In this document: piece after piece, positions 1-15,972 of the stretch
Numbering within the stretch: the stretch's first letter is position 1
How the letters are laid out: each line of letters opens with the position of its first letter
Source: an uncultured Desulfatitalea sp.
GTDB lineage: Bacteria; Desulfobacterota; Desulfobacteria; Desulfobacterales; Desulfosarcinaceae
Direction: 5' to 3'
Length of the DNA stretch: 64,000 bases
NCBI GenBank assembly: GCA_937868765.1
Contig: CALMNL010000004.1
Span: 880,749-944,748 of the forward strand
Notes under the pieces: generated by a model
The model's input: the letters and a program-made list of their open reading frames with translations, nothing else
Database searches by the model: none
What the model was told of the DNA's origin: nothing
Translations under genes and position numbers: made by a program

Positions 1-2
1 GG

Positions 3-149
3 ACTTTCAAGGACGTGAATTCCTTTCCCCCCGATTTTCCGGAGGGTATTCAGGCGTTCACGGCCCTGCGCATCCGCGCCACCACGCCCTTCGTGGTCCG
101 GTACCTGTATTGGAATGTGGACCGACACCCGGAACTCTTTTCTAGGTGA
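3..149 (+). CDS. 3' end of an unknown protein (5' truncated by window edge)
   Basis: An open frame runs from the first bases of the window to a TGA at 147-149 and gives 48 residues ending PELFSR. The composition is that of a normal high-GC coding region and no stop interrupts it, so it is probably the C-terminus of a real gene whose start lies upstream. I do not recognise the family. It is followed by non-coding sequence with an intron-like hairpin, so it is not part of the cas operon. Confidence 0.45.
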   Translation, partial: TFKDVNSFPPDFPEGIQAFTALRIRATTPFVVRYLYWNVDRHPELFSR

Positions 150-666
150 GTTGCACGACGCATGGCAATGCCTCTCAGAGTTTGTCGCCAACCCGCAGGG
201 GCGGCCGCAAGAGGGCGACCGCCTGTCCGCCCCCCTAAGGGTCATGCGACAATGACCGGTTGACCTTCCGGGGCCGACTCCTACCCCCTCCGAACCGTGC
301 GTGCGGACCACCCGCACACGGTTCTGTCCCTTACCCGCCTTCGCATTCTAAATATGCGCCGTATCCGCATACCGATCCGGCTATTTTCTCCTTCTCGGCC
401 ATCTGCGCCCTCGTCGGCCCCTTGTTGGAATTTACGGAGAATTACGAGATCAGGGGCAGCTCGAAACGCGATATCCCGATTTTTAAGGGTTGCCATGACC
501 GCCGATCCGATCCATAAAAAAGAGGCACCCCTCCCTGCCAAAAAGATGAAAAATTTCCCCCCGGTGTGACCGTATCTGTCACAGGCGGGTGGTATGGTCA
601 GGCCAAAGAGTTTGGACATATCGCGGCGCGTTGTCTTTACGAACACCAATAATAAGGTAAAGGAGT
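150..666. other. Intergenic region upstream of the cas operon
   Basis: About 500 bases hold no convincing gene; short overlapping frames on both strands look spurious. The left part (roughly 185-330) is GC-rich and contains strong hairpins, including the domain V-like structure listed separately. The right part (about 480-660) is more AT-rich and must carry the cas3 promoter. A run ending AAAGGAG sits directly before the cas3 ATG and is the likely ribosome binding site. I see no clear -10/-35 pair. Confidence 0.5.
292..324 (-). ncRNA. Group II intron domain V-like hairpin (probable intron relic)
   Basis: Read on the minus strand, these 33 bases fold as an 8-bp lower stem (GAACCGTG with CACGGTTC), a two-base CG bulge on the 3' side, a 5-bp upper stem (TGCGG with CCGCA) and a small loop. 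This is the layout of group II intron domain V. The usual AGC catalytic triad reads AAC, and the loop is not a clean GNRA tetraloop. No reverse transcriptase/maturase frame is found within the window. It is therefore best read as a degenerate 3' intron fragment, or as a chance hairpin. Confidence 0.35.
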
Positions 667-3318
667 ATGATTGACCCCAAGTTAACCAATTTTTGGGCCA
701 AAACAGAGAAAGGCGATGATGATGGCGGTGCTTGGCATCCGCTCATCCTGCATATGCTGGATGTTGCCGCTGTTTCAGATGCCATTTTAGAAAGGGAACC
801 ACAAGAAACCCGGCATAGAATGGGCGTTGTTTTGGACATGAATTGGGAAAAGGCGCGTCCATGGCTCTTGGTTGTCGTAGCTTGCCACGACCTTGGAAAA
901 GCTTGCCCGGGTTTTCAGTGTAAGTGGAAGAATCTTTCGGAGTTGGATGCAGGACGAAGCCCAAACACGAATATTGGACATGGATTTGTCAGTCAGATCG
1001 CCTTAACGGAGTTCTTGCTCAAAATTGGCTGGCCGGAGGATCTGGCGGACCTGGTCGCAGATGCAGTCGGATGCCATCATGGCGCGCGTATATCTCCATT
1101 TAAACGGGAACATCTGGAAGGCGATCGGCGCGTTCTCGGGAAACAAGAGTGGACCAAGGCACGCCAGGCCCTCATTGAAACATTGATTGCGTTCTTCAAC
1201 CCAGGCGGCCCCCCGACCAAGAAAACGCTTACTGGCCCCGACTTCATGCTGCTGGCCGGGCTCACCAGTTTCGCGGATTGGATCGGTTCTAATGAAGCGT
1301 GGTTTCCTTATGGAACGCCCCGAGACACCGAGGATCTGCCCGGTTGGTTTCAAAATCGCAGGATTAGAGCTGAGCAGGCTTTGGACCTGATCGGATGGAA
1401 TCGCAGAGCGCCGCTTGCAACCGCGCAAAAGAGTTTCGAGAATGTCTTCGGCTTTTCCCCCAGGCCATTGCAGCAGGCTGTAGCCGACGCGTTGCCCTTA
1501 TTGAAGGCTCCCTCGATTTTGTTGGTGGAAGCGCCCATGGGGGAAGGCAAAACCGAAGCAGCCCTGTTCGCCCATCTCGAATTGCAGCGACGCTTCGGCC
1601 ACCGGGGCCTGTATGTGGCGCTACCGACCAAGGCCACCGGTAACGCTATGTTCCAGCGGGTCCTCAAATTCTTGGCCAACGAAGGATCGCAACGGAAGGT
1701 AGACTTGCAGCTATTGCATGGCGCCACGCTGCTGAGCGATGCTTTTCAAAACTTACGGTTTTCAGGCATCCATGACCCTGAAACGGGCGGTGAGATTCGG
1801 GCCGGCGAATGGTTCACTCACAAAAAAAGAGCGCTCCTTTCCGAATACGGCGTGGGAACCGTGGACCAGGCCATACTTCCGATTCTGCCGGTTCGTCACA
1901 ACTTTGTCCGTTTATGGGGCCTTGAGAACCGAGTTGTGATTTTCGACGAAATTCACGCTTACGACGCATATACGGGTACGCTTTTGGTCCAGCTTCTGCG
2001 TTGGCTCATGGCGCTGGGATCTTCGGTCGTACTTCTTTCGGCAACCTTGCCGCCTTCCATTCGGAGAAAGTTGGCGGAAGTGACGAATAGTGTATTGCCG
2101 GAAGAGGAGACAGCGTATCCCCGCCTTTCCGTCTTCCAATCCGGCCAGGCAAGGCAGATCCGATTCGCGGCCGATCCGATGCGACGCCGGTCTCTCCGGC
2201 TGGTCGGAATCGAGCCGGACCTGATGAGCATGCGCACGGCCATCGAAGGTCAACTCATAAGTGGCGGTCTGGGTTTGGCGCTGGTCAATACCGTGCAAAG
2301 GGCGCAAGATTTGTTCGGGCTTTTCCCCGAAGGAACCCCTATCGAAAGAGCAGGCAAAAGGATAGGCAAACGCCTCTCCGATGGAACGGAAGTATTTCTC
2401 TTTCACGCCCGTTATCCGGCCGATAGGCGGCAACAGCGGGAGGATCATGCCATAGCGGCTTTTGGTCCGGACGCCAATCGGGCCGGACGTAAAATCCTGA
2501 TTGCCACCCAGGTGGCCGAACAGAGTCTGGACTTGGACTTCGACGTGATCGCAACCGATCTTGCGCCCATCGACCTTGTGCTCCAAAGAGCCGGCCGATT
2601 GTGGCGGCACGCATCGGGTTCCAGACCGGTCTCGGAACCGGTTTTACTGATAGCCGGCCTTACCGGCGATGCGCCTCCGCTGTTCGATGATCCTCTCTGG
2701 TGGGGGACTGTTTACCGGGAAGACCTTTTGTTGCGCACGTGGATTCTCTTGCACCCGAAGCAGGGCCTTACGTTGCCGGATGACATCGATGTTCTGGTGC
2801 AGGCGGCTTACGAAGAACAAGTCGTCGTTCCTGAGGCTTTGCGGGAGCGAATGGAGAGCGCGCTCATGAAAGGCGAAGGCGACGCCTGTGCCCTGAAGAT
2901 GCAGGCCAACCAGGCGATCATAGGGTTTCCGGACGATGCCTCTTGGAACGATACGGCCCGCCTTGTGCTTTATGATGAAGATGAGCCCGGGGTGCACCGC
3001 ACCCTGATGGCCCAGACCCGCCTTGGGCAAGAATCGGTCGTGGCCATCCCTCTCTGGCCGCAGGACGGATTCAACACTGAAGAGATTCCGGCATTCTCGC
3101 AAGCCAAGCTCTGGTTTATGAGATCCGTAAGTCTATCGCGTAAAAATGTCGTCCAGAAATTTAGGTCGATGGGAACACCCGAAGGCTGGCGAAAATCGCC
3201 CCTCTTGCGCAACTGTTTTCCGCTGGTGCTGGATGACGAAGGATGCTGGATAGAGAACGCCATGGTGCGTCTGGATGACGACCTTGGCATATTGTACGAG
3301 ACAAAGGAGGCCGAATGA
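667..3318 (+). CDS. cas3: CRISPR-associated helicase/nuclease Cas3 (type I-E)
   Basis: Cas3 is recruited by target-bound Cascade and unwinds and degrades foreign DNA. The 883-residue protein has an N-terminal HD nuclease domain (His24, His29, then CHDLGK with His74-Asp75, and a later GCHHG). A superfamily 2 helicase follows: Walker A-like APMGEGKTE at 289-297, DEIH box at 427-430, SAT at 458-460, and motif VI QRAGRLWRH further on. HD and helicase parts are fused, as is usual in I-E systems. It heads the operon, and its TGA overlaps the cse1 ATG by four bases. A ribosome binding site lies just before the ATG at 667. Confidence 0.97.
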   Translation: MIDPKLTNFWAKTEKGDDDGGAWHPLILHMLDVAAVSDAILEREPQETRHRMGVVLDMNWEKARPWLLVVVACHDLGKACPGFQCKWKNLSELDAGRSPNTNIGHGFVSQIALTEFLLKIGWPEDLADLVADAVGCHHGARISPFKREHLEGDRRVLGKQEWTKARQALIETLIAFFNPGGPPTKKTLTGPDFMLLAGLTSFADWIGSNEAWFPYGTPRDTEDLPGWFQNRRIRAEQALDLIGWNRRAPLATAQKSFENVFGFSPRPLQQAVADALPLLKAPSILLVEAPMGEGKTEAALFAHLELQRRFGHRGLYVALPTKATGNAMFQRVLKFLANEGSQRKVDLQLLHGATLLSDAFQNLRFSGIHDPETGGEIRAGEWFTHKKRALLSEYGVGTVDQAILPILPVRHNFVRLWGLENRVVIFDEIHAYDAYTGTLLVQLLRWLMALGSSVVLLSATLPPSIRRKLAEVTNSVLPEEETAYPRLSVFQSGQARQIRFAADPMRRRSLRLVGIEPDLMSMRTAIEGQLISGGLGLALVNTVQRAQDLFGLFPEGTPIERAGKRIGKRLSDGTEVFLFHARYPADRRQQREDHAIAAFGPDANRAGRKILIATQVAEQSLDLDFDVIATDLAPIDLVLQRAGRLWRHASGSRPVSEPVLLIAGLTGDAPPLFDDPLWWGTVYREDLLLRTWILLHPKQGLTLPDDIDVLVQAAYEEQVVVPEALRERMESALMKGEGDACALKMQANQAIIGFPDDASWNDTARLVLYDEDEPGVHRTLMAQTRLGQESVVAIPLWPQDGFNTEEIPAFSQAKLWFMRSVSLSRKNVVQKFRSMGTPEGWRKSPLLRNCFPLVLDDEGCWIENAMVRLDDDLGILYETKEAE

Positions 3319-4832
3319 GCCGATTCAACCTGATTGACGAAAAATGGATTCCACTGCGAATGCCGGATGGCACCCACAACGAGCTTGGCATCCGCGACAC
3401 CTTGTTGCGAAGCAAAGAGATCGCCGCCATCGAAGACCCTTCGCCGCTGGTGGTGGCGGCCTTGCACCGCTTTCTGCTTGCGGTGCTGTACCGCGCGTTG
3501 GAAGGGCCGACCGATATCGAACAAGCCAAGGCGTTATTTAGAGATGGGTTACCGGGCGAAAGAATACAGGCATATTTGGAAAAATGGCGAGATCGGTTTT
3601 GGCTGTTTGACGAGAAGTATCCATTTGGGCAGAATCCGAACGTCCCAAAGGATGAAATCGAACCATGGACCAAGTTAACGGCCGAATACAACGCAACATC
3701 CAACAAAGTGCTTTTTGATCACACCAACACTGAGAAGCCAGGAGAAAGAGAGCCGAAGGAATGTGCCCGTTGGCTGATAGCAACGATGAGTTTTTCAATC
3801 TCTGGTGGCCGAGGCTATTATCCTTCTCCATCGCCAAATGCAATGATGTGTATTCCTCTCGGACGAAATGTTTTTGAAACTCTTTGTTACAACCTTGTTC
3901 ATTACCCAAATCGAGACGTAGCAAGAACTGACACAGGGTTGTGGGAACGTGAACCGAATGCACTTCCTCTCGGCACGCCAAAGCGAATTGCATCGGGTTA
4001 TGCAGACTTATATACGTGGGCGCCCAGAATGATTTTCCTTGAAGAACATCCGATGCATAGGGTGACTCGCATGAGGTTCATTGCTGGGCATGGGTTTGAA
4101 AATGCCTTCAATAGCCCAGATCCAATGCAAGCATATAATATCGACAAAACCAAAGGAATTTTACCTATTCGATTTAGGAAGAATCGTGGAGTTTGGAGAG
4201 ATTTTGACTCATTACTTCCCGATGCCGACGATCTTGCCCCGCTTACTGTTCAGAACGCCTTTCGGTTGGCAGGCACTAACGCAAGAAAAATGCCTAATTC
4301 AGTTTTGGTCCTTGGCCTGAGATATGAGCCACCAAGTGCGAACGTTGATTTCTGGCGCATGGAGCGCTTCATCTTGCCAAAAGCTTTTGAGGGGGTTCGC
4401 CTCATCCGCACTGAAATACGGCAACTCCTCACCGATTCTGAAGATGCACAGAAATCGCTCCGGCTGGCTTGCCGCTCCTTTGCACGGAATATCTTGAGCC
4501 GAGGTGAGCGCCAACCCACAGGGAAAGACATCGATGGATTTGTAGAACAGATGTCGGCTATTGCTTGGTATTGGTCCACATTGGAAACACGCTTTCACGA
4601 GATACTACATGAATACACACTCGGAAGGGATTCCGAGGATATCCGTTATCAGTGGTTGAAGTCGGTCCGGGAAACTTTGGAAGCTGCCTGGGATCAGCAT
4701 CGTGCCGCGGTCAGCATTGGCGATGCATGGGCTATTCGCGCAATTGTGAAGGCAGAAAAGCCGGTACGGCGCAAACTTCAAGAACTTAAACAAGAAATCA
4801 TGAAGCTCGAACCACAGAAGGAGGAGGCATGA
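3315..4832 (+). CDS. casA: Cascade large subunit Cse1/CasA (Cas8e)
   Basis: Cse1 is the large subunit of the type I-E Cascade complex; it reads the PAM and helps recruit Cas3. The 505-residue product begins with NLIDEKWIPL, typical of the family's N-terminus, and is close to the E. coli length (about 502). It overlaps cas3 and cse2 by four bases at each end (ATGA junctions), so translation is probably coupled. The part from about 3540 to 4620 is clearly richer in A+T than both ends of the gene, which suggests a recombined or fast-evolving segment. Confidence 0.95.
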   Translation: MSRFNLIDEKWIPLRMPDGTHNELGIRDTLLRSKEIAAIEDPSPLVVAALHRFLLAVLYRALEGPTDIEQAKALFRDGLPGERIQAYLEKWRDRFWLFDEKYPFGQNPNVPKDEIEPWTKLTAEYNATSNKVLFDHTNTEKPGEREPKECARWLIATMSFSISGGRGYYPSPSPNAMMCIPLGRNVFETLCYNLVHYPNRDVARTDTGLWEREPNALPLGTPKRIASGYADLYTWAPRMIFLEEHPMHRVTRMRFIAGHGFENAFNSPDPMQAYNIDKTKGILPIRFRKNRGVWRDFDSLLPDADDLAPLTVQNAFRLAGTNARKMPNSVLVLGLRYEPPSANVDFWRMERFILPKAFEGVRLIRTEIRQLLTDSEDAQKSLRLACRSFARNILSRGERQPTGKDIDGFVEQMSAIAWYWSTLETRFHEILHEYTLGRDSEDIRYQWLKSVRETLEAAWDQHRAAVSIGDAWAIRAIVKAEKPVRRKLQELKQEIMKLEPQKEEA

Positions 4833-5347
4833 GCGGATTTGTCGAGTGGCTGGAAGGCCTGAACGAGAAAGACACCAAAGTGCGGGCGGTCTTGAGGCGC
4901 AGCCTCGCTTTCGACCCCGGGATGTTTGTGCCCGCCTATCCCTACGTCGAACCCTTAATGAAGAATGACGATAGCTTCTGGCGGCGGGAAATGCATTACC
5001 TCGTGGCCGGACTGTGGGCGGCACACTGGCGCAAAGAAAGGTCGGGCCAACCGATGTCGATTGGGAAAGCTTGCGCGGCTTATCAAGCAGCCAGCGGTTC
5101 CGCGAGCACCGAACGGCGCTTCATTGCGTTACTGGATGCTGACGCGAACCAACTACCGCACCGCCTGCGCCAAATACTTTCACTCCTGAGGGAGCTTTCG
5201 ATTGATTTCGAAGAGCTGCTGAAGGGGCTTTTATTCTGGCAGGACGATCAGAAGCGCACACAGAAGACCTGGGCGCGCGATTTTTACAGGAATATGGAAC
5301 CCGAAAATGAAATGACGACCCACACCCCAGAGGAGGAAGGTAAATGA
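4829..5347 (+). CDS. casB: Cascade small subunit Cse2/CasB (Cas11)
   Basis: Cse2 forms the small-subunit belly of type I-E Cascade and stabilises the R-loop. The product has 172 residues, near the family norm of about 160-180. It has the expected opening SGFVEWLEGLNEKD, a YPYVEP segment and a mostly helical basic composition. Four-base overlaps with cse1 upstream and cas7 downstream fix both ends. A GGAGG-type site precedes the start inside the end of cse1. Confidence 0.93.
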   Translation: MSGFVEWLEGLNEKDTKVRAVLRRSLAFDPGMFVPAYPYVEPLMKNDDSFWRREMHYLVAGLWAAHWRKERSGQPMSIGKACAAYQAASGSASTERRFIALLDADANQLPHRLRQILSLLRELSIDFEELLKGLLFWQDDQKRTQKTWARDFYRNMEPENEMTTHTPEEEGK

Positions 5348-6504
5348 AGACTTTCGTCGAAATTCATGCACTACAGAACTTCGCGCCGTCCAATTTAAAC
5401 CGTGACGATACAGGCGCTCCTAAAGATGCCCTTTTTGGGGGCACCCGCCGAGCTCGTGTCTCCAGCCAGTGTCTCAAGCGGGCGGTAAGACAACATTTCG
5501 CGGAATTGGTAAAGCAAAATGAACTCACCACCGAGGATATCGCCTACCGAACCAAACGGCTCTTGGATGAGCTTACCAAGGCATTAAAGAATAAGAATCA
5601 CGTCGAAGCCGAAGCGTCCGAAAAGGCGCGTTTGGCTTTGGCGAGCATGGAGCTCACGGTGAAGGAGGATGGAAAGAGCGAGTACCTTTTATTTATGGGC
5701 CAGCGCGAGATCGCGAATATTGCTGAGATCATAAATTCGAAGTGGGATACCATCAACGCCGCTGCTCCTGCGGCGCCTGAAGGGAAAAAGCCCGGCAAGG
5801 CCAAAAAACAGGCTGCCCAAAATGCCGATCCCGAACTAAAAAAGGCGCTGGACAAGGTTTTCAACGGTGGCAAGGCGCTGGATGTTGCCCTATTCGGGCG
5901 CATGCTGGCCGACATGCCTGAAAAAAACCAGTACGCCGCCTGCCAAGTAGCACACGCCATTTCGACGCATGCCGTCGAGCGTGAATTCGACTTCTACACG
6001 GCCGTGGACGATCTAAAACCCGAGGATACAGCCGGCGCTGACATGATGGGCACCATAGAATTCAACTCGGCTTGTTTTTACCGTTATGCCGTGGTGGATT
6101 GGGAAAAGCTCATTTCCAATTTGCAAGCAGACAAGGAATTGGCGGCAAAAGGGTTACGCGCCTTCCTGGAAGGATTCGTCGTGGCCGAGCCCACCGGCAA
6201 GCAGAACACCTTCGCGGCGCATAACCCACCGGAGTTCGTTGCCATCTCAATTCGCAGAAACGGCGCTGCGCGCAACCTGGCCAATGCATTCGAAACCGCC
6301 ATCCGCCCCAAAAAAGATGAGTCGCTAACCAAAAAGTCGGCCGAAGAGCTGATTAAAAAGGCCAAGGCGCTGAATGCGGCTTTTGGCGGCGAAGGAGATA
6401 TTTGGGCTCTGAATCTTGTCGGAGTGGACACCGATGGATTTGGGACCAAGGTAGATTCACTTAAGGAACTGCTCGACCATAGCATGGCCAAGCTGAAGGA
6501 GTGA
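5344..6504 (+). CDS. casC: Cascade backbone subunit Cas7/CasC (Cse4)
   Basis: Cas7e polymerises along the crRNA spacer to form the Cascade backbone. The 386-residue protein has the characteristic start with a LQNFAPSNLNRDD segment, then FGGTRRARVSSQCLKRA. The E. coli protein has about 363 residues. The extra length lies in an Ala/Lys/Pro-rich insertion near residues 140-160, probably in a flexible thumb loop. It overlaps cse2 by four bases, and cas5 starts three bases after its stop. Confidence 0.96.
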   Translation: MKTFVEIHALQNFAPSNLNRDDTGAPKDALFGGTRRARVSSQCLKRAVRQHFAELVKQNELTTEDIAYRTKRLLDELTKALKNKNHVEAEASEKARLALASMELTVKEDGKSEYLLFMGQREIANIAEIINSKWDTINAAAPAAPEGKKPGKAKKQAAQNADPELKKALDKVFNGGKALDVALFGRMLADMPEKNQYAACQVAHAISTHAVEREFDFYTAVDDLKPEDTAGADMMGTIEFNSACFYRYAVVDWEKLISNLQADKELAAKGLRAFLEGFVVAEPTGKQNTFAAHNPPEFVAISIRRNGAARNLANAFETAIRPKKDESLTKKSAEELIKKAKALNAAFGGEGDIWALNLVGVDTDGFGTKVDSLKELLDHSMAKLKE

Positions 6505-6507
6505 TAT

Positions 6508-7203
6508 ATGCCGACACTGTTGCTGCGCCTGGTGGGCCCCATGCAATCGTGGGGCACCACCAGCCGTTTCGACCAGCGCGATACCGGAAAAGAACCCAGC
6601 AAGTCCGGCGTAATCGGGTTGTTAGCCGCTGCTCTGGGCATCGACCGTGAAAACTGGACCGACCTGCAACCACTAACCAAGCTGTCCATGGGAGTTCGCC
6701 ACGACCGGCCGGGGGTTCCCAAGCGAGATTACCAGACCGCCGGCTGCGCCGCCAACGATACCATCATCAAAGCAGATGGAAAGCCATCGAAGGATGGGGT
6801 TGTATCCCAACGCTTCTATCTTGCCGATGCGGCTTTCCTTGTGGGGGTTGAAGGAGAGGACCGAGCGTTTCTCGATAAGGTTCACGCCAACCTGATCGAT
6901 CCTGTCTGGCCGCTCGCCCTGGGGCGCAAATCCTACCTGCCCTCCGAACCGATTGCACTTGAAAATGCCGTTCAAGATGCTTCTTTGAAGGAAGTGCTCA
7001 CGCGATGGCCATGGATCTGTTCGGTGCGAAAATGGGAATCGCCACCCGAAAAGCTGCTAATTTCCTTAGAATCCACCGATGGCTCCGGCGTGCTCAAAAT
7101 GGATCAGCCGCTCTCATCTTTTGCCGAGCGCCGGTTCGGCGCACGCTTCGTGAGTTCGGAGTGGATTCCTTTTCCCAAGGAGGCGTCCCATGTTCCTGCA
7201 TAG
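6508..7203 (+). CDS. casD: Cascade subunit Cas5e/CasD
   Basis: Cas5e caps the 5' handle end of the crRNA in Cascade. The 231-residue product starts LLLRLVGPMQSWGTTSRF and continues with KEPSKSGVIGLLAAALG, both hallmarks of Cas5 in I-E systems, where the QSWG segment belongs to the RAMP fold. The gene begins three bases after the cas7 stop. Its last 14 bases overlap the start of cas6e, indicating tight operon structure. Confidence 0.95.
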   Translation: MPTLLLRLVGPMQSWGTTSRFDQRDTGKEPSKSGVIGLLAAALGIDRENWTDLQPLTKLSMGVRHDRPGVPKRDYQTAGCAANDTIIKADGKPSKDGVVSQRFYLADAAFLVGVEGEDRAFLDKVHANLIDPVWPLALGRKSYLPSEPIALENAVQDASLKEVLTRWPWICSVRKWESPPEKLLISLESTDGSGVLKMDQPLSSFAERRFGARFVSSEWIPFPKEASHVPA

Positions 7204-7864
7204 AATCCACCTTGACCCCAGATGCCGGGAAGCGCGACGCGATCTTTCGGATCCCTATCAACTTCATTCCACCTTGTGTCGGGCTTTCGCCGCGCCGGAT
7301 CAGAAATGCCCTGGTGGTCTGTTTTTGTGGCGGATCGAGCCGGAAGCTGGACCCACCGGCTACCCGACCATTCTAGTGCAAAGCAAGATGCTTCCGGATT
7401 GGTCCGGCATCGGCATTAAGGGCTGGCTTGCTAAGGCTGACCCGGCCATCGATTTGAACGCACGGCTCTCGCTTGCTTCCATCCAAAATGGCCGGCGATT
7501 TCGATTCAGATTGCGCGCAAATCCATGCGTGACGCGCAATGGCAAAAGGAAAGGGCTATTGAAGTTGGAGGAGCAGGAAGAATGGCTTGATCGCAAAGGC
7601 GCTCAGCACGGTTTTTCATTGCCACAAACGGTATCCTTCGACCTTTCTGATACGCCCGCGAAGCGCGTGGACGTAAGGGTAAGCCAAGAACAGATGCTTA
7701 CGGGCCGCAAACGCGACGGCAATGCTATTTCTATCTTTTCCGTTCTGTATGATGGGGCTTTGGAGGTTACCGACCCGGGACGCTTCAGAGCCGGGGTGCA
7801 GAATGGCATAGGGCATGGCAAGTCCATGGGACTTGGCCTGCTGTCTATAGCGCCGATCACATAA
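7190..7864 (+). CDS. casE: CRISPR RNA endoribonuclease Cas6e/CasE (Cse3)
   Basis: Cas6e cuts the precursor crRNA at the base of the repeat hairpin and stays bound to the 3' stem. The 224-residue protein has the RAMP N-terminus MFLHRIHLDP, a His at residue 26 (YQLHSTLCRAF) in the position of the catalytic His of this family, and a C-terminal Gly-rich loop GIGHGKSMGLGLLSI. Its substrate would be the CCCCAC/GTGGGG stem in the repeats of the adjacent array. The start overlaps cas5. Confidence 0.95.
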   Translation: MFLHRIHLDPRCREARRDLSDPYQLHSTLCRAFAAPDQKCPGGLFLWRIEPEAGPTGYPTILVQSKMLPDWSGIGIKGWLAKADPAIDLNARLSLASIQNGRRFRFRLRANPCVTRNGKRKGLLKLEEQEEWLDRKGAQHGFSLPQTVSFDLSDTPAKRVDVRVSQEQMLTGRKRDGNAISIFSVLYDGALEVTDPGRFRAGVQNGIGHGKSMGLGLLSIAPIT

Positions 7865-7907
7865 GCAGGGTAGGCTTCAATTTAGGCGATAAAAAGGGGG
7901 AGAGGCA

Positions 7908-8753
7908 ATGGAGACAAAGATAGCGTTATTTCGTGGAAAGCAGATCAGGAAAACCATTCACAGCAACGAATGGTGGTTTTCGGTCGTGGATGTTTGTGGG
8001 GCACTTACCGACAGCCTTGATGCCGGGGCGTATTGGCGCAAGCTTAAACAACGATTGAAACAGGAGAGCCACGAAGCCGTGACGTTTTGTCACGGGTTGA
8101 AATTGCCCGCGCCGGACGGCAAGTTGCGGGAAACGGATTGCGCCAACACCGAAGGCATCTTCCGCATCATTCAATCCATTCCCTCGCCCAAGGCCGAACC
8201 GTTCAAGCGCTGGCTGGCCAAGGTGGGTTACGAACGGGTGCAGGAGATCGAGGACCCGGAGCTGGCCAGTCGCCGCACGCGGGAGATTTACAAGGCCAAG
8301 GGCTATTCCGATGAATGGATCGAAAAGCGGATGCGGGGCATCGCCATCCGGGCCGAATTGACCGAGGAGTGGAAGAAGCGAGACGTGAACGGAGAGCCGG
8401 AATATGCCATTTTGACTTCGGAGATCAGCAAGGCGGCGTTTGGATTGACGCCGGGTGAGTATAAAAAGCTCAAGGGTTTGAAACGGGAAAACCTGCGCGA
8501 CCACATGACCGACTTGGAGCTGATCTTCTCCATGCTGGGCGAGGCCGCCACCACCGAGATTGCCCGTGAGCAGGATGCCAGGGGATTCGTGGAGAATAAA
8601 GTCGCGGCCCACAAGGGAGGGCGGATTTCCGGCGAGGCCCGCGAAAAGCTGGAGGCGGAAACCGGCAAAAGGGTGGTATCATCTGAAAATTATTTGGTCG
8701 AGCCGGAAAGCCGGAAACGATTGGCAATGAAAAAGGGCCAGAAGGAAAAATAG
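7908..8753 (+). CDS. BRO-N / DinD-like protein inside the cas operon
   Basis: The 281-residue protein is not a standard cas gene. Residues about 5-110 resemble the BRO-N domain of phage antirepressors (EWWFSVVDVCGAL near 21-33). Residues about 145-250 resemble the C-terminal half of E. coli DinD, with KGLKRENLRDHM at 189-200. The tail is very basic. DinD is a LexA-controlled protein reported to act on RecA filaments; a regulator or DNA-binding role here is inference. It sits between cas6e (43-base gap) and cas1 (41-base gap), on the same strand and with its own GGGAGAGG ribosome site. It is therefore probably cotranscribed with the cas genes. Confidence 0.8.
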   Translation: METKIALFRGKQIRKTIHSNEWWFSVVDVCGALTDSLDAGAYWRKLKQRLKQESHEAVTFCHGLKLPAPDGKLRETDCANTEGIFRIIQSIPSPKAEPFKRWLAKVGYERVQEIEDPELASRRTREIYKAKGYSDEWIEKRMRGIAIRAELTEEWKKRDVNGEPEYAILTSEISKAAFGLTPGEYKKLKGLKRENLRDHMTDLELIFSMLGEAATTEIAREQDARGFVENKVAAHKGGRISGEAREKLEAETGKRVVSSENYLVEPESRKRLAMKKGQKEK

Positions 8754-8794
8754 GAACGGTCGACCGGCAATCGGTATAGGAGGACATCAAAAGC

Positions 8795-10052
<1,258 letters not shown>

Positions 10053-10144
10053 CAAATCGATTTAAGATAACAATGGCGCTCCATTTTATCGGTGGAAAAT
10101 CAGCCTTCCGGAATCTGAAATAATTTTAGTGGATTCCAGGAAGA
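10053..10144 (+). promoter_or_regulatory. CRISPR leader
   Basis: Ninety-two bases separate the cas2 stop from the first repeat. They are AT-richer than the surroundings and contain no gene. The repeats have the same orientation as E. coli I-E repeats (GAGTTCCCC-like start, ATGAACCG end), and degenerate repeats cluster at the far end. Both point to this side as the leader and promoter end. I could not pick out a convincing IHF site or -10/-35 pair. A TTGACA overlaps the cas2 stop but lacks a well-spaced -10. Confidence 0.7.
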
Positions 10145-13100
10145 GACTTCCCCACACGCGTGGGGATGAACCGCTTCCGTTTTCTTCCATGAGATCAGGG
10201 CGCAAGACTTCCCCACACGCGTGGGGATGAACCGGATATCCGCCTTCGGGGCGGCTTCAAGCGTGAGACTTCCCCACACGCGTGGGGATGAACCGGTTAT
10301 CTGACCGAGGTGCCCTCCAGACGACATGACTTCCCCACACGCGTGGGGATGAACCGCAGAAGGCATACACACCCTCGGGTTTGTGTGAGACTTCCCCACA
10401 CGCGTGGGGATGAACCGGCCCGGCGGGCGTTTTGCCTTAACCTGAAATGGACTTCCCCACACGCGTGGGGATGAACCGTTATTACTACCGTTCACATGCC
10501 TGTAGACATCGACTTCCCCACACGCGTGGGGATGAACCGGGCATTGCCTACCACTGGACAACCCCAATCGGGACTTCCCCACACGCGTGGGGATGAACCG
10601 GTTTGGGAACGATGGGGAACCGCCCAGGTAAAGACTTCCCCACACGCGTGGGGATGAACCGCCAACCTGGGCCTTGATGCGCGAAACGGCCAGGACTTCC
10701 CCACACGCGTGGGGATGAACCGCCCAAATAGCGGGCAAGCGGGCTTTCGGTCTTGACTTCCCCACACGCGTGGGGATGAACCGGCTTGCAAATGGTGCCA
10801 GGTATAAAGCTGATAGACTTCCCCACACGCGTGGGGATGAACCGGATAAGGTCGGGCCGATCCGCGCCGAAAATGGGACTTCCCCACACGCGTGGGGATG
10901 AACCGTTCTGCCCGCGTTCCCTGGCCACCTTACGGAAGACTTCCCCACACGCGTGGGGATGAACCGGGCGTCGTCTGCCTCTTGCCCGTGGCACACGAGA
11001 CTTCCCCACACGCGTGGGGATGAACCGTCCTCATCGCGCAGCGTGCCAGTGCTGATTGACGACTTCCCCACACGCGTGGGGATGAACCGTGCCTTGACAT
11101 CGGCGCCGGAATCAGGATCGAGACTTCCCCACACGCGTGGGGATGAACCGCATCACCACCCGGCGGCCTGCCGGATGTGTAGGACTTCCCCACACGCGTG
11201 GGGATGAACCGGACTGGACGTGGTCATTGCCTACGATGCGGACGACTTCCCCACACGCGTGGGGATGAACCGGCGTCTGCTTTCAATTTGATCGCCACGT
11301 TCCCGACTTCCCCACACGCGTGGGGATGAACCGGGTTGCAACTTCATTGGAAATTACCTGGGTGTGACTTCCCCACACGCGTGGGGATGAACCGCGGGCG
11401 GCACCTATCACCAGCCACAAAAGAGCGACTTCCCCACACGCGTGGGGATGAACCGCCACACCATGGCCTGCTTGCTTGCCACCACGGGACTTCCCCACAC
11501 GCGTGGGGATGAACCGCGATCGGATCACTTGCTGATTATTGGCGATAAGACTTCCCCACACGCGTGGGGATGAACCGTTCGCCCTCTTCTATCAGGTATA
11601 TGGCAAAGGGACTTCCCCACACGCGTGGGGATGAACCGCTTTATCGCTTCATTCAATTCATTCAAGGAAAGACTTCCCCACACGCGTGGGGATGAACCGC
11701 TTTAATCTTGTTTTTTCTGCTTGGTTTTGCTGACTTCCCCACACGCGTGGGGATGAACCGAGATTGCCGACCTTAAGACACACCTAATTGCCGACTTCCC
11801 CACACGCGTGGGGATGAACCGCAATTGACGACACCGTGGTGGCAAGCAAGCAGGACTTCCCCACACGCGTGGGGATGAACCGTAGACCGTTTCCTCCTCA
11901 TCAAAATAGGCCAGGACTTCCCCACACGCGTGGGGATGAACCGGGCGATTTTTCCGGTGGGTATTGGCCGAATGTGACTTCCCCACACGCGTGGGGATGA
12001 ACCGTTGTTTCTCCAGCCGCGCGGTATTGCACTATAAGACTTCCCCACACGCGTGGGGATGAACCGCTTGCTCATCTTTTCATTGATACTTGCAATTCGA
12101 CTTCCCCACACGCGTGGGGATGAACCGTGCAGGGCGTGCCGGATATGGCCACCATTGCGGACTTCCCCACACGCGTGGGGATGAACCGCCATCCACATCT
12201 TTACCAATTCTGCATGGAAAGACTTCCCCACACGCATGGGGATGAACCGTTGATAGATTGGCTGGAACAACAAGACCCTGAGACTTCCCCACACGCGTGG
12301 GGATGAACCGCGTGAGTTTATGTTTTGGGCGGTAACGACCGGGACTTCCCCACACGCGTGGGGATGAACCGGGAAGAACAAGCAGCTTGACCATACCTTT
12401 TGAGACTTCCCCACACGCGTGGGGATGAACCAGTATTGGTGGTGGCAGAGGCCAGCCATCCGCCGACTTCCCCACACGCGTGGGGATGAACCGGCTCAAA
12501 GAGCCGCCGCCGTGCGACGCCTGCCGACTTCCCCACACGCGTGGGGATGAACCGCTTGCTCATCTTTTCATTGATACTTGCAATTCGACTTCCCCACACG
12601 CGTGGGGATGAACCGATGTACTCCAACATCGCGGAAAACCCCTACTAGACTTCCCCACACGCGTGGGGATGAACCGCGGTACGGTCGCCTATGATGCCGG
12701 AACGGTATGACTTCCCCACACGCGTGGGGATGAACCGGATAAAGCCTTTCAAGATTATTGCGAAGAGCAGACTTCCCCACACGCGTGGGGATGAACCGCG
12801 CATCACCTGGTATCCGCCACACGCCGGGCAGACTTCCCCACACGCGTGGGGATGAACCGCCCTTAGTTGATATTGCGTTAGGCTCAGTAGCGACTTCCCC
12901 ACACGCGTGGGGATGAACCGGCTCCAAGTACATTCCGATTTACTAAGGATATGACTTCCCCACACGCGTGGGGATGAACCGTACTCAAAAAACGTGACAA
13001 TTATTGTCACTTTGACTTCCCCACACGCGTGGGGATGAACCGGTACGTCACCTTTGGCGCGGGTTCATATTGTCGACTTCCCCACACGCGTGGGGATGAA

Positions 13101-15972
13101 CCGAAACCCTTAAAATGCAGGCTTTTCTCATGTCGGACTTCCCCACACGCGTGGGGATGAACCGATCCTTTCGTAGGATCTTTGATACGGACAAATGACT
13201 TCCCCACACGCGTGGGGATGAACCGCGCTAAGTTCTCATGGCGTACCTAATAAGGCAGACTTCCCCACACGCGTGGGGATGAACCGTACCCGGCTATTTT
13301 TTTGTCCATACTGGTACGCGACTTCCCCACACGCGTGGGGATGAACCGCTATCGAAAAAGAAAAGATCATTACCGATCTTGACTTCCCCACACGCGTGGG
13401 GATGAACCGTTGGCCTGCCATGAGCATCGAATGATGCCCATGACTTCCCCACACGCGTGGGGATGAACCGCTCTCCAAGTTTTCTAAAGGCGTTCTTGTT
13501 TGGACTTCCCCACACGCGTGGGGATGAACCGATGAAAATCCGCTCCGCGTCTGTTGTGCCCGTGACTTCCCCACACGCGTGGGGATGAACCGCACCAATG
13601 GCAGTTGTGCCCAGCGCTGCTTCGGACTTCCCCACACGCGTGGGGATGAACCGCATGTCTTTGGGGATGTCCGGGGTATCCACCCGACTTCCCCACACGC
13701 GTGGGGATGAACCGTCCTTACTGGCCTTTTTCATCTCAGGTAGTGGGACTTCCCCACACGCGTGGGGATGAACCGACGCTGAGTGTTGTTGTAAGAAGGG
13801 GGGAGAAGACTTCCCCACACGCGTGGGGATGAACCGTGCCGTCGTCTTCTGCACCGTCAGAATCACAGGACTTCCCCACACGCGTGGGGATGAACCGAGC
13901 ATCGGGGCGATATTGATATCGTTCTTGACGACTTCCCCACACGCGTGGGGATGAACCGCGATCATTTGCGTGCCCTCCCCTTTTATTGATGACTTCCCCA
14001 CACGCGTGGGGATGAACCGCAATACCTTTTTAATGTACATTACAATTAACCGACTTCCCCACACGCGTGGGGATGAACCGAGAGAGAGCATATGGTATGC
14101 CAAACCGAATACGACTTCCCCACACGCGTGGGGATGAACCGTGTCCTTTGCCCTGGTGGATGCTACACTTACCCGACTTCCCCACACGCGTGGGGATGAA
14201 CCGTGCTGGCTGGTAGTGCCCTAACAGCTATTCCTGACTTCCCCACACGCGTGGGGATGAACCGGCAGACTACATCCAGGCGCCCCTTGCGGAACTGACT
14301 TCCCCACACGCGTGGGGATGAACCGCGCAGTTCTTTTGGTATCCAATATATTCCTTCGACTTCCCCACACGCGTGGGGATGAACCGTTGATTGATAGGTA
14401 ATCTTGAATGATTAACCCGACTTCCCCACACGCGTGGGGATGAACCGTCAGAAGGCCGGGAGGCGCTTGCCCGCTGGTAGACTTCCCCACACGCGTGGGG
14501 ATGAACCGGATATGCAATCCCTTGTATGGCCTAAGCATTTGACTTCCCCACACGCGTGGGGATGAACCGATCATTCCCAACATCGGCAACGGATCCATCG
14601 TGACTTCCCCACACGCGTGGGGATGAACCGCTGGGTGGATAGCGCCTGGGCGGGGGAATGGCGACTTCCCCACACGCGTGGGGATGAACCGCCCTTTCGT
14701 GGGCGGTAAAATGCCATGAGCGCGACTTCCCCACACGCGTGGGGATGAACCGGAGCACTTCTGGGCAGTGGGCCTCAACAGCAAGACTTCCCCACACGCG
14801 TGGGGATGAACCGCCGTCTATGACCATGAATATAGGCATTGTGAGGACTTCCCCACACGCGTGGGGATGAACCGTCCGGGGAGTTGCTGGAGGCGCACCG
14901 GGCTACGACTTCCCCACACGCGTGGGGATGAACCGCCTGCGACGAGGCCGTGGCGCTACTCAGGGCAGACTTCCCCACACGCGTGGGGATGAACCGCCAT
15001 GAGGTCTATTCAATTCGCTGGTGCTGCCGACTTCCCCACACGCGTGGGGATGAACCGCATAATTTGCTTGGTTTTCTTCCATTTGATCAGACTTCCCCAC
15101 ACGCGTGGGGATGAACCGCGCTTTATTATGCCCAGGTATTGGCGCGTAAGGACTTCCCCACACGCGTGGGGATGAACCGACAGTTACCTTGCCTCTGTGG
15201 CTGGAGAAGAGGACTTCCCCACACGCGTGGGGATGAACCGCTGGTGCGGCCGGCGGGCTCGTGGCTGGGGGAGACTTCCCCACACGCGTGGGGATGAACC
15301 GTTGCCATCTGCAAGCGCATCGCCAACGTGTACGACTTCCCCACACGCGTGGGGATGAACCGCAGCAGCATCCTGACCTCGAGATCAGGTTCGTGACTTC
15401 CCCACACGCGTGGGGATGAACCGAACACAGCAATCCAGGGGGAGGATGCGTGAATGACTTCCCCACACGCGTGGGGATGAACCGCTCGGTGGGCGAGTCG
15501 TCCCCTGAGTACGGCGGACTTCCCCACACGCGTGGGGATAAACCGAAAGGTGCATCGACTATGGAACCGAAAACAAGGACTTCCCCACACGCGTGGGGAT
15601 GAACCGTACCGAAATACCTACAGTTCCGGCTGGTTATGGACTTCCCCACACGCGTGGGGATGAACCCCGGCCGAACTTGGGCGCTTCCGAACGATAGGCG
15701 ACTTCCCCACACGCGTGGGGATGAACCGCGCCTTTGGTCGCCCTCTTCATAGCGCCGGTTGACTTCCCCACACGCGTGGGGATGAACCGGCAACGCCGCC
15801 CTCGTCGGAGAATTCAACCGAGACTTCCCCACACGCGTGGGGATGAACCGCCGAATTTATGTCGTACAAGAAAACCCTTGGAGACTTCCCCACACGCGTG
15901 GGGATGAACCGTGGTCAAGCCAGGACAATTCGCCCGAAAGGGCGACTTCCCCACACGCGTGGGGATGAACCG
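10145..15972 (+). CRISPR. Type I-E CRISPR array, 96 repeats / 95 spacers
   Basis: The 29-base repeat begins GACTTCCCCACACGCGTGGG and ends GATGAACCG. It contains a CCCCAC/GTGGGG stem with an ACGC loop, and Cas6e cutting would leave the 8-base handle ATGAACCG. Reading every unit gives 95 spacers, 91 of 32 bases and four of 33 (spacers 15, 31, 52 and 66), which accounts exactly for the total length. Four repeats differ from consensus by one base: 12221-12249, 12404-12432, 15517-15545 and 15639-15667. Long minus-strand reading frames across the array are artefacts of the 61-base periodicity. No second array is seen. Confidence 0.99.

What the first reader, a model, noticed from the sequence alone, without database searches (positions are those of the whole stretch)
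7908..8753. DinD/BRO-N-like gene embedded between cas6e and cas1
Seen: a 281-residue protein with a BRO-N-like N-terminus and a DinD-like C-terminus (KGLK...DHM) lies on the same strand between the interference and adaptation halves of a compact I-E operon, with about 40-base gaps and its own ribosome site. Known: DinD is an SOS protein of E. coli reported to affect RecA filaments, and BRO-N domains occur in phage antirepressors. Inference: it could couple DNA damage or RecA/RecBCD products to spacer acquisition, regulate the operon, or be phage cargo, possibly an anti-CRISPR-like regulator. Standard I-E operons lack this gene.
Basis: partly seen in the sequence, partly recalled or inferred. 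Interest (0 to 1): 0.72.

Follow-up and report, generated by a model that had tools for sequence, protein, structure and literature searches.

The report
DinD-like DNA-binding gene inside CRISPR operons
A probable DNA-binding protein, distantly related to a bacterial DNA-damage protein and able to swap one small segment by recombination, sits inside the genes of a CRISPR immune system and belongs to a branch of its family found mostly in such systems, so it may be an unrecognised helper of bacterial immunity; its job is untested.

Summary
In detail: ORF 7908-8753 (281 aa) has a BRO-N domain and a distant DinD-like C-terminus and lies between cas6e and cas1e of a complete I-E operon. It matches PADLOC candidate PDC-S13, as does E. 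coli DinD. The family is broad and mostly not CRISPR-linked: 5 of 77 full-length copies in a cross-phylum set. The window's branch differs: 36 of 37 CRISPR-linked rows fall in one 52-row clade (support 81) that moves between I-E and I-C operons. Of 77 resolved I-E cas1 loci, 16 carry it upstream of cas1e; others carry DUF1016, Fic or RhuM genes there. A near-identical same-genus operon lacks it. In the PDB, AlphaFold models match only DdrC, a DNA-protecting protein of Deinococcus. Residues about 35-75 are exchanged as a cassette by recombination, in CRISPR and restriction operons alike. Best reading: an immune accessory embedded in the operon, binding DNA, probably breaks or single strands made by immune nucleases. 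A Cas1-Cas2-specific role is possible but not required. SOS control found no support and phage cargo or anti-CRISPR little. No function was tested.

The parts
7908..8753 (+). BRO-N/DinD-like gene (PADLOC candidate PDC-S13), 281 aa
7944..8222 (+). BRO-N domain, residues 13-105
   Evidence: Pfam PF02498; model strands 15-18 and 21-25, helices 26-33 and 39-52, strands 62-67 and 73-80
8010..8135 (+). Exchangeable cassette, about residues 35-76 (helix 39-52 plus hairpin 62-80; presumed recognition helix and wing)
   Evidence: recombinant tract against the same-genus allele; 7 clusters among 157 sequences
8358..8546 (+). DinD-like stretch, residues 151-213, with KGLK...DHM
   Evidence: hhalign to E. 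coli DinD; PADLOC model shared with DinD
667..3318 (+). cas3
3315..4832 (+). cas8e
4829..5347 (+). cas11e
5344..6504 (+). cas7e
6508..7203 (+). cas5e
7190..7864 (+). cas6e
8795..9733 (+). cas1e (TTG start)
9735..10052 (+). cas2e
10145..15972 (+). CRISPR array, 96 repeats of 29 bases, spacers 32 (91) or 33 (4) bases

Best explanation
The gene is a mobile immune accessory that inserts into immune operons and is expressed with them. It belongs to the DinD-like PDC-S13 family; the window's branch has come to live mainly in type I CRISPR operons (I-E and I-C). Shown here: identity, operon position, the CRISPR-dominated clade, the same family in restriction-modification operons, the DdrC-like predicted fold, and a short segment of the BRO-N domain that is exchanged by recombination. 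Inferred: the protein is a DNA-binding dimer whose helical body, shared with DinD and resembling DdrC, handles DNA ends or single strands that appear when Cas3 or restriction enzymes cut (protecting, bridging or annealing them, or limiting RecA on them), while the swappable helix-plus-hairpin sets what it recognises. Its use to the host would be to steer the fate of cut DNA during an immune response, in R-M and CRISPR systems alike, with prespacer supply as one possible outcome in CRISPR operons.
For: PDC-S13 3.7e-122, and E. coli DinD in the same family. PADLOC model PDLC03083 matches DinD in its first part (6-267) and an HsdS in its last (286-707), so DinD-HsdS fusions are in that library. 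Direct neighbours of the gene at 59 loci without cas genes (105 proteins scanned): ResIII 12, Methylase_S 10, N6_Mtase 8, Eco57I 7, HsdM_N 6. Of 80 full-length copies in the fetched regions 31 are CRISPR-linked, 18 R-M-linked, 31 neither. Tree of 158 rows: the CRISPR label needs 11 changes against a shuffled mean of 33.4, 0 of 500 shuffles as low; at least 9 changes between I-E and I-C. PDB fold search: the only chains with E <= 1e-3 are six DdrC chains, for the window model (best 8.3e-7) and again for a relative with another cassette (best 1.7e-7). DdrC binds single- and double-stranded DNA, protects it from nucleases, anneals strands and circularises linear DNA (PMC5436757: abstract and discussion read). 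Cassette. The same operon junction hosts other candidate accessories (DUF1016, Fic, RhuM).
Against: No function was tested. TM-scores to DdrC are low (0.29-0.43 by query length) with rmsd above 10 A, so the domains are arranged differently. Viral BRO-N, KilA-N and repressor-domain proteins match about as well (23 matches at E <= 1e-3, best 7.2e-8), so the fold match alone does not pick a repair role over a regulatory one. DdrC itself shows no sequence specificity, which sits badly with a swappable recognition cassette. The DinD link is weak by direct comparison. No sequence relation to any PDB chain was found (0 hits; 4 chance-level hits at E >= 1.1). 95 of 158 family rows have no classified immune neighbour.
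Confidence: 0.45

Rival explanations
1. Adaptation factor: the protein works with Cas1-Cas2, catching or guarding prespacer DNA made by Cas3, RecBCD or other nucleases, with the cassette biasing which DNA is taken.
For: In 15 of the 16 I-E loci with the gene it lies between cas5e/cas6e and cas1e. It follows Cas1, not Cas7, in divergence: in L156 Cas1 is 97% and this protein 92% identical while Cas5, Cas6 and Cas7 are 32-38%. In I-C operons it is often cas7c|gene|cas4c|cas1c or cas4c|gene|cas1c. It appears with cas1 of two subtypes.
Against: The same family sits in R-M operons, which have no adaptation. In at least five I-C loci (L162, L190, L193, L195, L199) it lies upstream of cas3 or cas5c instead, and in I-E locus L182 upstream of cas3. 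Close relatives lack it: L174, L175, L176. 43 of 77 resolved I-E junctions are empty. Physical linkage to cas1 would by itself explain the tracking.
Confidence: 0.17
2. Autonomous single-gene anti-phage defence that only shares the operon's promoter and needs no Cas protein.
For: PADLOC lists the family as a single-gene candidate. It occurs alone and in R-M operons. The exchanged cassette fits recognition under an arms race. Other defence-like candidates use the same site.
Against: PADLOC's PDC names are unverified predictions (PMC12409356, passage seen). No catalytic or toxic domain was found. The CRISPR-dominated clade suggests more than random hitch-hiking.
Confidence: 0.2
3. Transcription regulator of the operon: the BRO-N winged helix binds an operator, and cassette exchange retunes it to different promoters.
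For: BRO-N is found in phage antirepressors and regulators; the predicted helix-helix-hairpin order is that of a winged helix.
Against: The gene lies seventh in the operon. Alleles with core identity of 90-95% share the cassette in only 48% of 105 pairs, and near-identical operons such as the window and L158 carry different cassettes although their Cas proteins are close. Operators were not searched for.
Confidence: 0.1
4. Phage cargo or anti-CRISPR that has settled in the operon.
For: BRO-N domain; PHROG family 15286 (unknown function) matches at 1.5e-97; 6 loci in viral contigs.
Against: 4 of 50,697 phage records and 11 of 72,556 plasmid records hold a match. The gene is kept under purifying selection inside intact operons in several families of bacteria.
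Confidence: 0.04
5. Selfish or neutral insertion at a tolerant site between two operon halves.
For: Many broken copies (fragments and copies with internal stops); remnants beside intact cas1e (G278, G600); absence from close relatives.
Against: Purifying selection, strongly conserved body (entropy 0.2 bits per residue over residues 91-100), a clade tied to CRISPR operons. No transposase or intein features were looked for.
Confidence: 0.04

Closest known systems
PADLOC candidate PDC-S13 (models PDLC04918-04920)
   Same: Full-length match 3.7e-122 to PDLC04920; also found in R-M operons.
   Different: An unverified candidate family with no assigned function; nothing found in the searches describes a CRISPR-bound branch or the cassette.
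E. coli DinD (SOS protein; reported to inhibit postsynaptic RecA filaments: Uranga et al. 2011, known here from a citation in PMC4849656, passage seen)
   Same: Shares the C-terminal KGLK...DHM region and a PADLOC family.
   Different: N-terminal halves were not aligned; DinD is a lone chromosomal gene between yicC and yicG; no LexA box found here.
Deinococcus radiodurans DdrC
   Same: The only PDB fold match at E <= 1e-3, for two models with different cassettes.
   Different: 12-16% identity in the fold alignments, low TM-scores; DdrC is about 60 residues shorter, is reported only in Deinococcaceae and binds without sequence specificity (PMC5436757).
Phage BRO-N antirepressors
   Same: BRO-N domain; PHROG antirepressor families at E 6e-5 and weaker over residues 1-120.
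   Different: Different C-terminal body; chromosomal, inside immune operons; very rare in phage records.
Adaptation accessories such as Cas4
   Same: Adjacent to cas1 and co-directed.
   Different: No nuclease domain found; absent from close relatives; also in operons without adaptation.

Membership tests
PDC-S13 / DinD-like | Full-length match to a family model | tested here: met
   PDLC04920, 3.7e-122, residues 2-276 of 281
PDC-S13 / DinD-like | Embedded in immune operons | tested here: met
   I-E in the window; 18 R-M, 30 I-E or I-C and 1 unclear CRISPR context among 80 full-length copies of the fetched regions; that embedding defines the family is my recall
PDC-S13 / DinD-like | Anti-phage activity | not testable with these tools
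   no experiment
E. coli DinD orthologue | Similarity over the whole protein | tested here: not met
   only C-terminal, 26% over 110 aa
E. coli DinD orthologue | LexA box / SOS induction | tested here: inconclusive
   no match to three recalled box patterns upstream of cas3 or the gene; the LexA motif of this lineage is not known to me
E. coli DinD orthologue | Inhibits RecA filaments | not testable with these tools
   no experiment
DdrC | Fold (N-terminal winged helix, helical C-terminal body) | tested here: inconclusive
   Foldseek E 8.3e-7 and 1.7e-7, probability 1.00, but TMq 0.29-0.43 and rmsd above 10 A
DdrC | Sequence similarity | tested here: not met
   no PDB sequence hit with the family profile, DdrC absent from the 4 chance hits
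Phage BRO-N antirepressor | BRO-N domain | tested here: met
Phage BRO-N antirepressor | Encoded by phages or prophages | tested here: not met
   4 of 50,697 phage records; cas genes on both sides in the window
Core type I-E Cas protein | Present in the operons of the subtype | tested here: not met
   16 of 77 resolved loci; 43 empty junctions
Anti-CRISPR | Blocks Cas function | not testable with these tools
   no experiment; position inside an intact operon argues against

The most novel reading that the evidence does not exclude
A dedicated CRISPR branch of a DNA-end-binding protein travels with cas1-cas2 across I-E and I-C operons and takes part in spacer acquisition: it captures or shields DNA ends or single strands made by the nucleases, and its recombining helix-plus-hairpin cassette, drawn from a few types shared with R-M-embedded relatives, decides which DNA is handled, much as target-recognition domains are swapped in HsdS.
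Probability: 0.15. Interest if true: 0.85.

Novelty: new variant of a known kind. Interest (0 to 1): 0.6.

Why it matters
If right, one family of DNA-binding accessories serves both restriction-modification and CRISPR immunity, with a branch specialised to CRISPR operons and with a small DNA-reading segment that is swapped between family members. That would link the fate of DNA cut by immune nucleases to immunity itself, and give a ready-made natural series (same operon, different cassette; same operon, no gene) to test whether such accessories shape spacer acquisition, self-damage or recombination. The I-E junction between interference and adaptation genes also emerges as a site that collects a small recurring set of candidate genes.

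Tried and rejected
SOS hypothesis: three LexA-box patterns (recalled: E. coli, Geobacter-like, GAAC-N4-GTTC core) give no match in 1-666 or 7865-7907; one one-mismatch match lies inside cas6e (7425) and one inside cas1e (9374); none of the three patterns is in excess over shuffles. No sigma-70-like promoter just before the gene (3 found in 1-10200 against 5.2 expected).

Phage cargo: rejected as leading idea.

Whole-family enrichment near cas: the first cross-phylum look with I-E queries alone found 2 of 80 loci; with I-C queries added, 5 of 77 full-length copies. I kept this as a result against a general CRISPR role.

Within-genome diversification of cassettes: not seen; 4 of 13 within-genome pairs share a type against 0.37 expected.

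Cassette type against subtype: I-C 15 of 19 type 1, I-E 5 of 16, Fisher p 0.007, not corrected for kinship, so not leaned on.

Nucleotide comparison with L156 is not usable: that copy was read from an earlier start, out of register. In one search the same pair was aligned by protein and is usable.

11 of the 88 I-E loci could not be resolved by the ORF step and are left out of the 77; two loci with remnants of the gene (G278, G600) are not counted in the 16.

Spacer origin: no spacer matched the rest of the window or the loci held at E <= 1e-3; the whole genome was not available as a file.

Literature: DinD + CRISPR + type I-E + cas1 0 papers; PDC-S13 0; Bro-N + CRISPR + cas1 2 papers, seen as a listing; DNA damage-inducible protein D + CRISPR 9, listing, with one passage looked at, about DinG; DinD/RhuM/Fic/restriction/embedded/CRISPR 35, listing; CRISPR-linked gene search 3, listing. 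In PMC10910872, passages only: Bro-N, DinD and RhuM occur 0 times in its main text; its supplements were not read. The preprint by Payne et al. 2024 on embedded defences was seen only as a title in reference lists.

Full report
What is there. ORF 7908-8753 is open and complete (281 aa). Pfam finds Bro-N at residues 13-105 (E 2.4e-13); NCBIfam finds nothing. PADLOC gives PDC-S13 at 3.7e-122 over residues 2-276 and PDC-S04 at 7.6e-21 over the BRO-N part; PHROG 15286, unknown function, at 1.5e-97. The neighbours are a full I-E set in the order cas3-cas8e-cas11e-cas7e-cas5e-cas6e-GENE-cas1e-cas2e, followed by 96 repeats. The window's genome holds one copy of the gene.

Relation to DinD. Direct comparison with E. 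coli DinD (record NC_000913.3) is weak and C-terminal. DinD itself scores as PDC-S13 with PDLC04919 (2.4e-121), and with the window's model PDLC04920 (2.2e-16). It also scores with PDLC03083, called a type I specificity subunit, whose last 420 positions match a real HsdS. So DinD and the window gene are branches of one family, and forms fused to HsdS exist in that library.

Where the family lives. In the phylum sample 60 of 395 genomes have a match, in the order sample 58 of 291, among the nearest relatives 13 of 60. I fetched regions around the better matches, best first; the weaker copies of the order sample were not fetched. Among 80 full-length copies there, 14 are in I-E, 16 in I-C and 1 in an unclear CRISPR context, 18 in R-M and 31 in none of these; among 77 copies from a cross-phylum scan (best 80 loci of more than 562) the numbers are 1, 3, 1, 8 and 64. 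Some loci occur in both sets (L054 and L163, L091 and L201, L119 and L205 lie on contigs of the same length, or have identical cores). R-M identity was checked by Pfam on 105 direct neighbours of 59 loci without cas genes: ResIII 12, Methylase_S 10, N6_Mtase 8, Eco57I 7, HsdM_N 6. Among 136 direct neighbours from the cross-phylum set the leading Pfam families are Fic 5 and RhuM, N6_N4 methylase and ResIII 3 each, with Cas1 2 and Cas4 2; most are unrelated genes (5 proteins over 1000 aa were left out).

A CRISPR-dominated clade. In a quick tree of 158 rows on residues 81-262 the CRISPR label needs 11 changes against a shuffled mean of 33.4 (0 of 500 as low), and 36 of its 37 rows lie in one clade of 52 with support 81, not a starred value; starred branches alone force 3 changes. 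Of the other 16 rows of that clade, L172 has cas1e and L057 a cas4 nearby, L091/L201 (one locus) lies 203 bases from a repeat array, one is in an R-M operon and the rest have no classified immune neighbour. I-E and I-C labels alone need at least 9 changes. The sampling started from the window protein, so this describes its relatives and not all bacteria.

Position. I surveyed every cas1e match above the family cut-off in three samples: 49 in the phylum sample, 35 more in the order sample and 4 more among relatives, 88 in all, without regard to this gene. 77 were resolved: 16 have the gene upstream of cas1e, 5 DUF1016 alone, 3 Fic alone, 1 RhuM, 43 nothing, 9 ORFs without a label. In 15 of the 16 a cas5e or cas6e gene is on the other side; in L172 none was found. 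Six of the 16 also hold Fic, DUF1016 or a nucleotidyltransferase-like gene (the last by eye). Two of the 16 copies are broken (L161, L173). PADLOC names for the companions were checked on examples: SoFic/PDC-S04, PDC-S02 and PDC-S23. In I-C operons the gene lies between cas7c and cas4c, between cas4c and cas1c, or upstream of cas3 or cas5c. By my own arithmetic (not a call), about 100 matches falling within 1.2 kb of 49 cas1e loci in some 1.4 Gb would give about 0.01 by chance, against 5 copies and one remnant in the phylum sample.

With and without. Within the window's genus (10 other genomes) cas1e above the cut-off occurs in 5; the gene is at the junction in 3 (G001, G008, G010) and absent there in 2 (G006, G009); the same-family genome G014 also lacks it. 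In G006, Cas1 is 95%, Cas5 94%, Cas6 92%, Cas3 91%, Cas7 77% and Cas8 56% identical to the window, and a Fic gene holds the junction. The gene is therefore dispensable.

Tracking with Cas1. Interference and adaptation genes are shuffled in these operons: identities of Cas1 and Cas7 are uncorrelated over 14 loci (Spearman 0.02). The gene follows Cas1 (partial Mantel r 0.42, p 0.002) and not Cas7 (0.15, p 0.14). This may reflect function or only nearness to cas1.

A swapped cassette. The body (residues 81-225) is strongly conserved, the stretch 31-80 is not. Against the same-genus copy L158, whose Cas1 is 98% identical, the gene differs at 67 of 138 bases in codons 35-80 and at 57 of 705 elsewhere; the densest 138-base window was not reached in 2000 permutations. 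Synonymous differences rise too (0.75 inside, 0.25 over residues 81-225), which points to recombination and not selection alone. Over the family, 8 of 24 pairs with a core identity of 95% or more have less than 50% in residues 38-76 (an earlier row set). 157 sequences fall into 7 clusters at 62% single linkage (78, 42, 21, 11, 2, 2, 1), and the share of same-type pairs drops from 0.77 (core 0.95 or more) to 0.48 (0.90-0.95) and about 0.3 below 0.8. The four largest types each occur in CRISPR, R-M and other contexts. In two models with different cassettes the stretch forms the helix from residue 39 and the hairpin of about 61-80, in the place of a recognition helix and wing; that functional reading is inference.

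Fold. Both models are confident (mean pLDDT 90.0 and 88.7). In the PDB the only matches at E <= 1e-3 are six chains of DdrC, both times, with low TM-scores and high rmsd. In the viral library BRO-N, KilA-N and repressor-domain proteins match about as well. DdrC protects DNA from nucleases, anneals strands and circularises linear DNA, without sequence specificity (PMC5436757, abstract and discussion).

How it most likely works. Shown: the gene's place, its family, its CRISPR-dominated clade, its cassette exchange and its predicted fold. Inferred: DNA binding, dimer formation, action on ends or single strands, and the cassette's role in recognition. I give 0.45 to an embedded accessory of this kind, 0.20 to autonomous defence, 0.17 to a Cas1-coupled adaptation factor and 0.10 to a regulator.

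Novelty. The family is a listed but unverified defence candidate, and embedding of defence genes in immune operons is known (titles and passages). I found no paper in the library searched that reports a CRISPR-bound branch, the cassette exchange or the DdrC-like fold; preprints and most subscription papers are not held, so this is limited. I file it as a new variant of a known kind.

Noticed in passing
cas5e/6e-cas1e junction in relatives: L174, L258, L300 (Fic); L262, L302, L304, L321, L322 (DUF1016); L268 (RhuM): The junction between interference and adaptation genes collects a small recurring set of candidate genes, not only the BRO-N/DinD-like one.
   Followed up: partly
window and L156 (G008): Same-genus I-E operons share Cas1 at 97% but Cas5, Cas6, Cas7 at 32-38%: the two halves of the operon are exchanged independently.
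   Followed up: partly
window 10145-15972: Array of 96 repeats with 95 spacers, one spacer present twice; no match to the rest of the window or to the loci held.
   Followed up: partly
L211:9789 and L211:10487: Two copies of the gene in tandem in one I-C operon, 60% identical in the core and with different cassette types.
   Followed up: no
L256:3761-4582 (E. coli K-12 dinD): DinD matches PADLOC candidate PDC-S13 and a model that joins DinD to HsdS, so E. coli DinD may be a lone survivor of an immunity-linked family.
   Followed up: no
L037/L091/L201: A copy of the gene 203 bases from a 15-repeat array with a different repeat and no cas gene recognised by the I-E and I-C queries.
   Followed up: no
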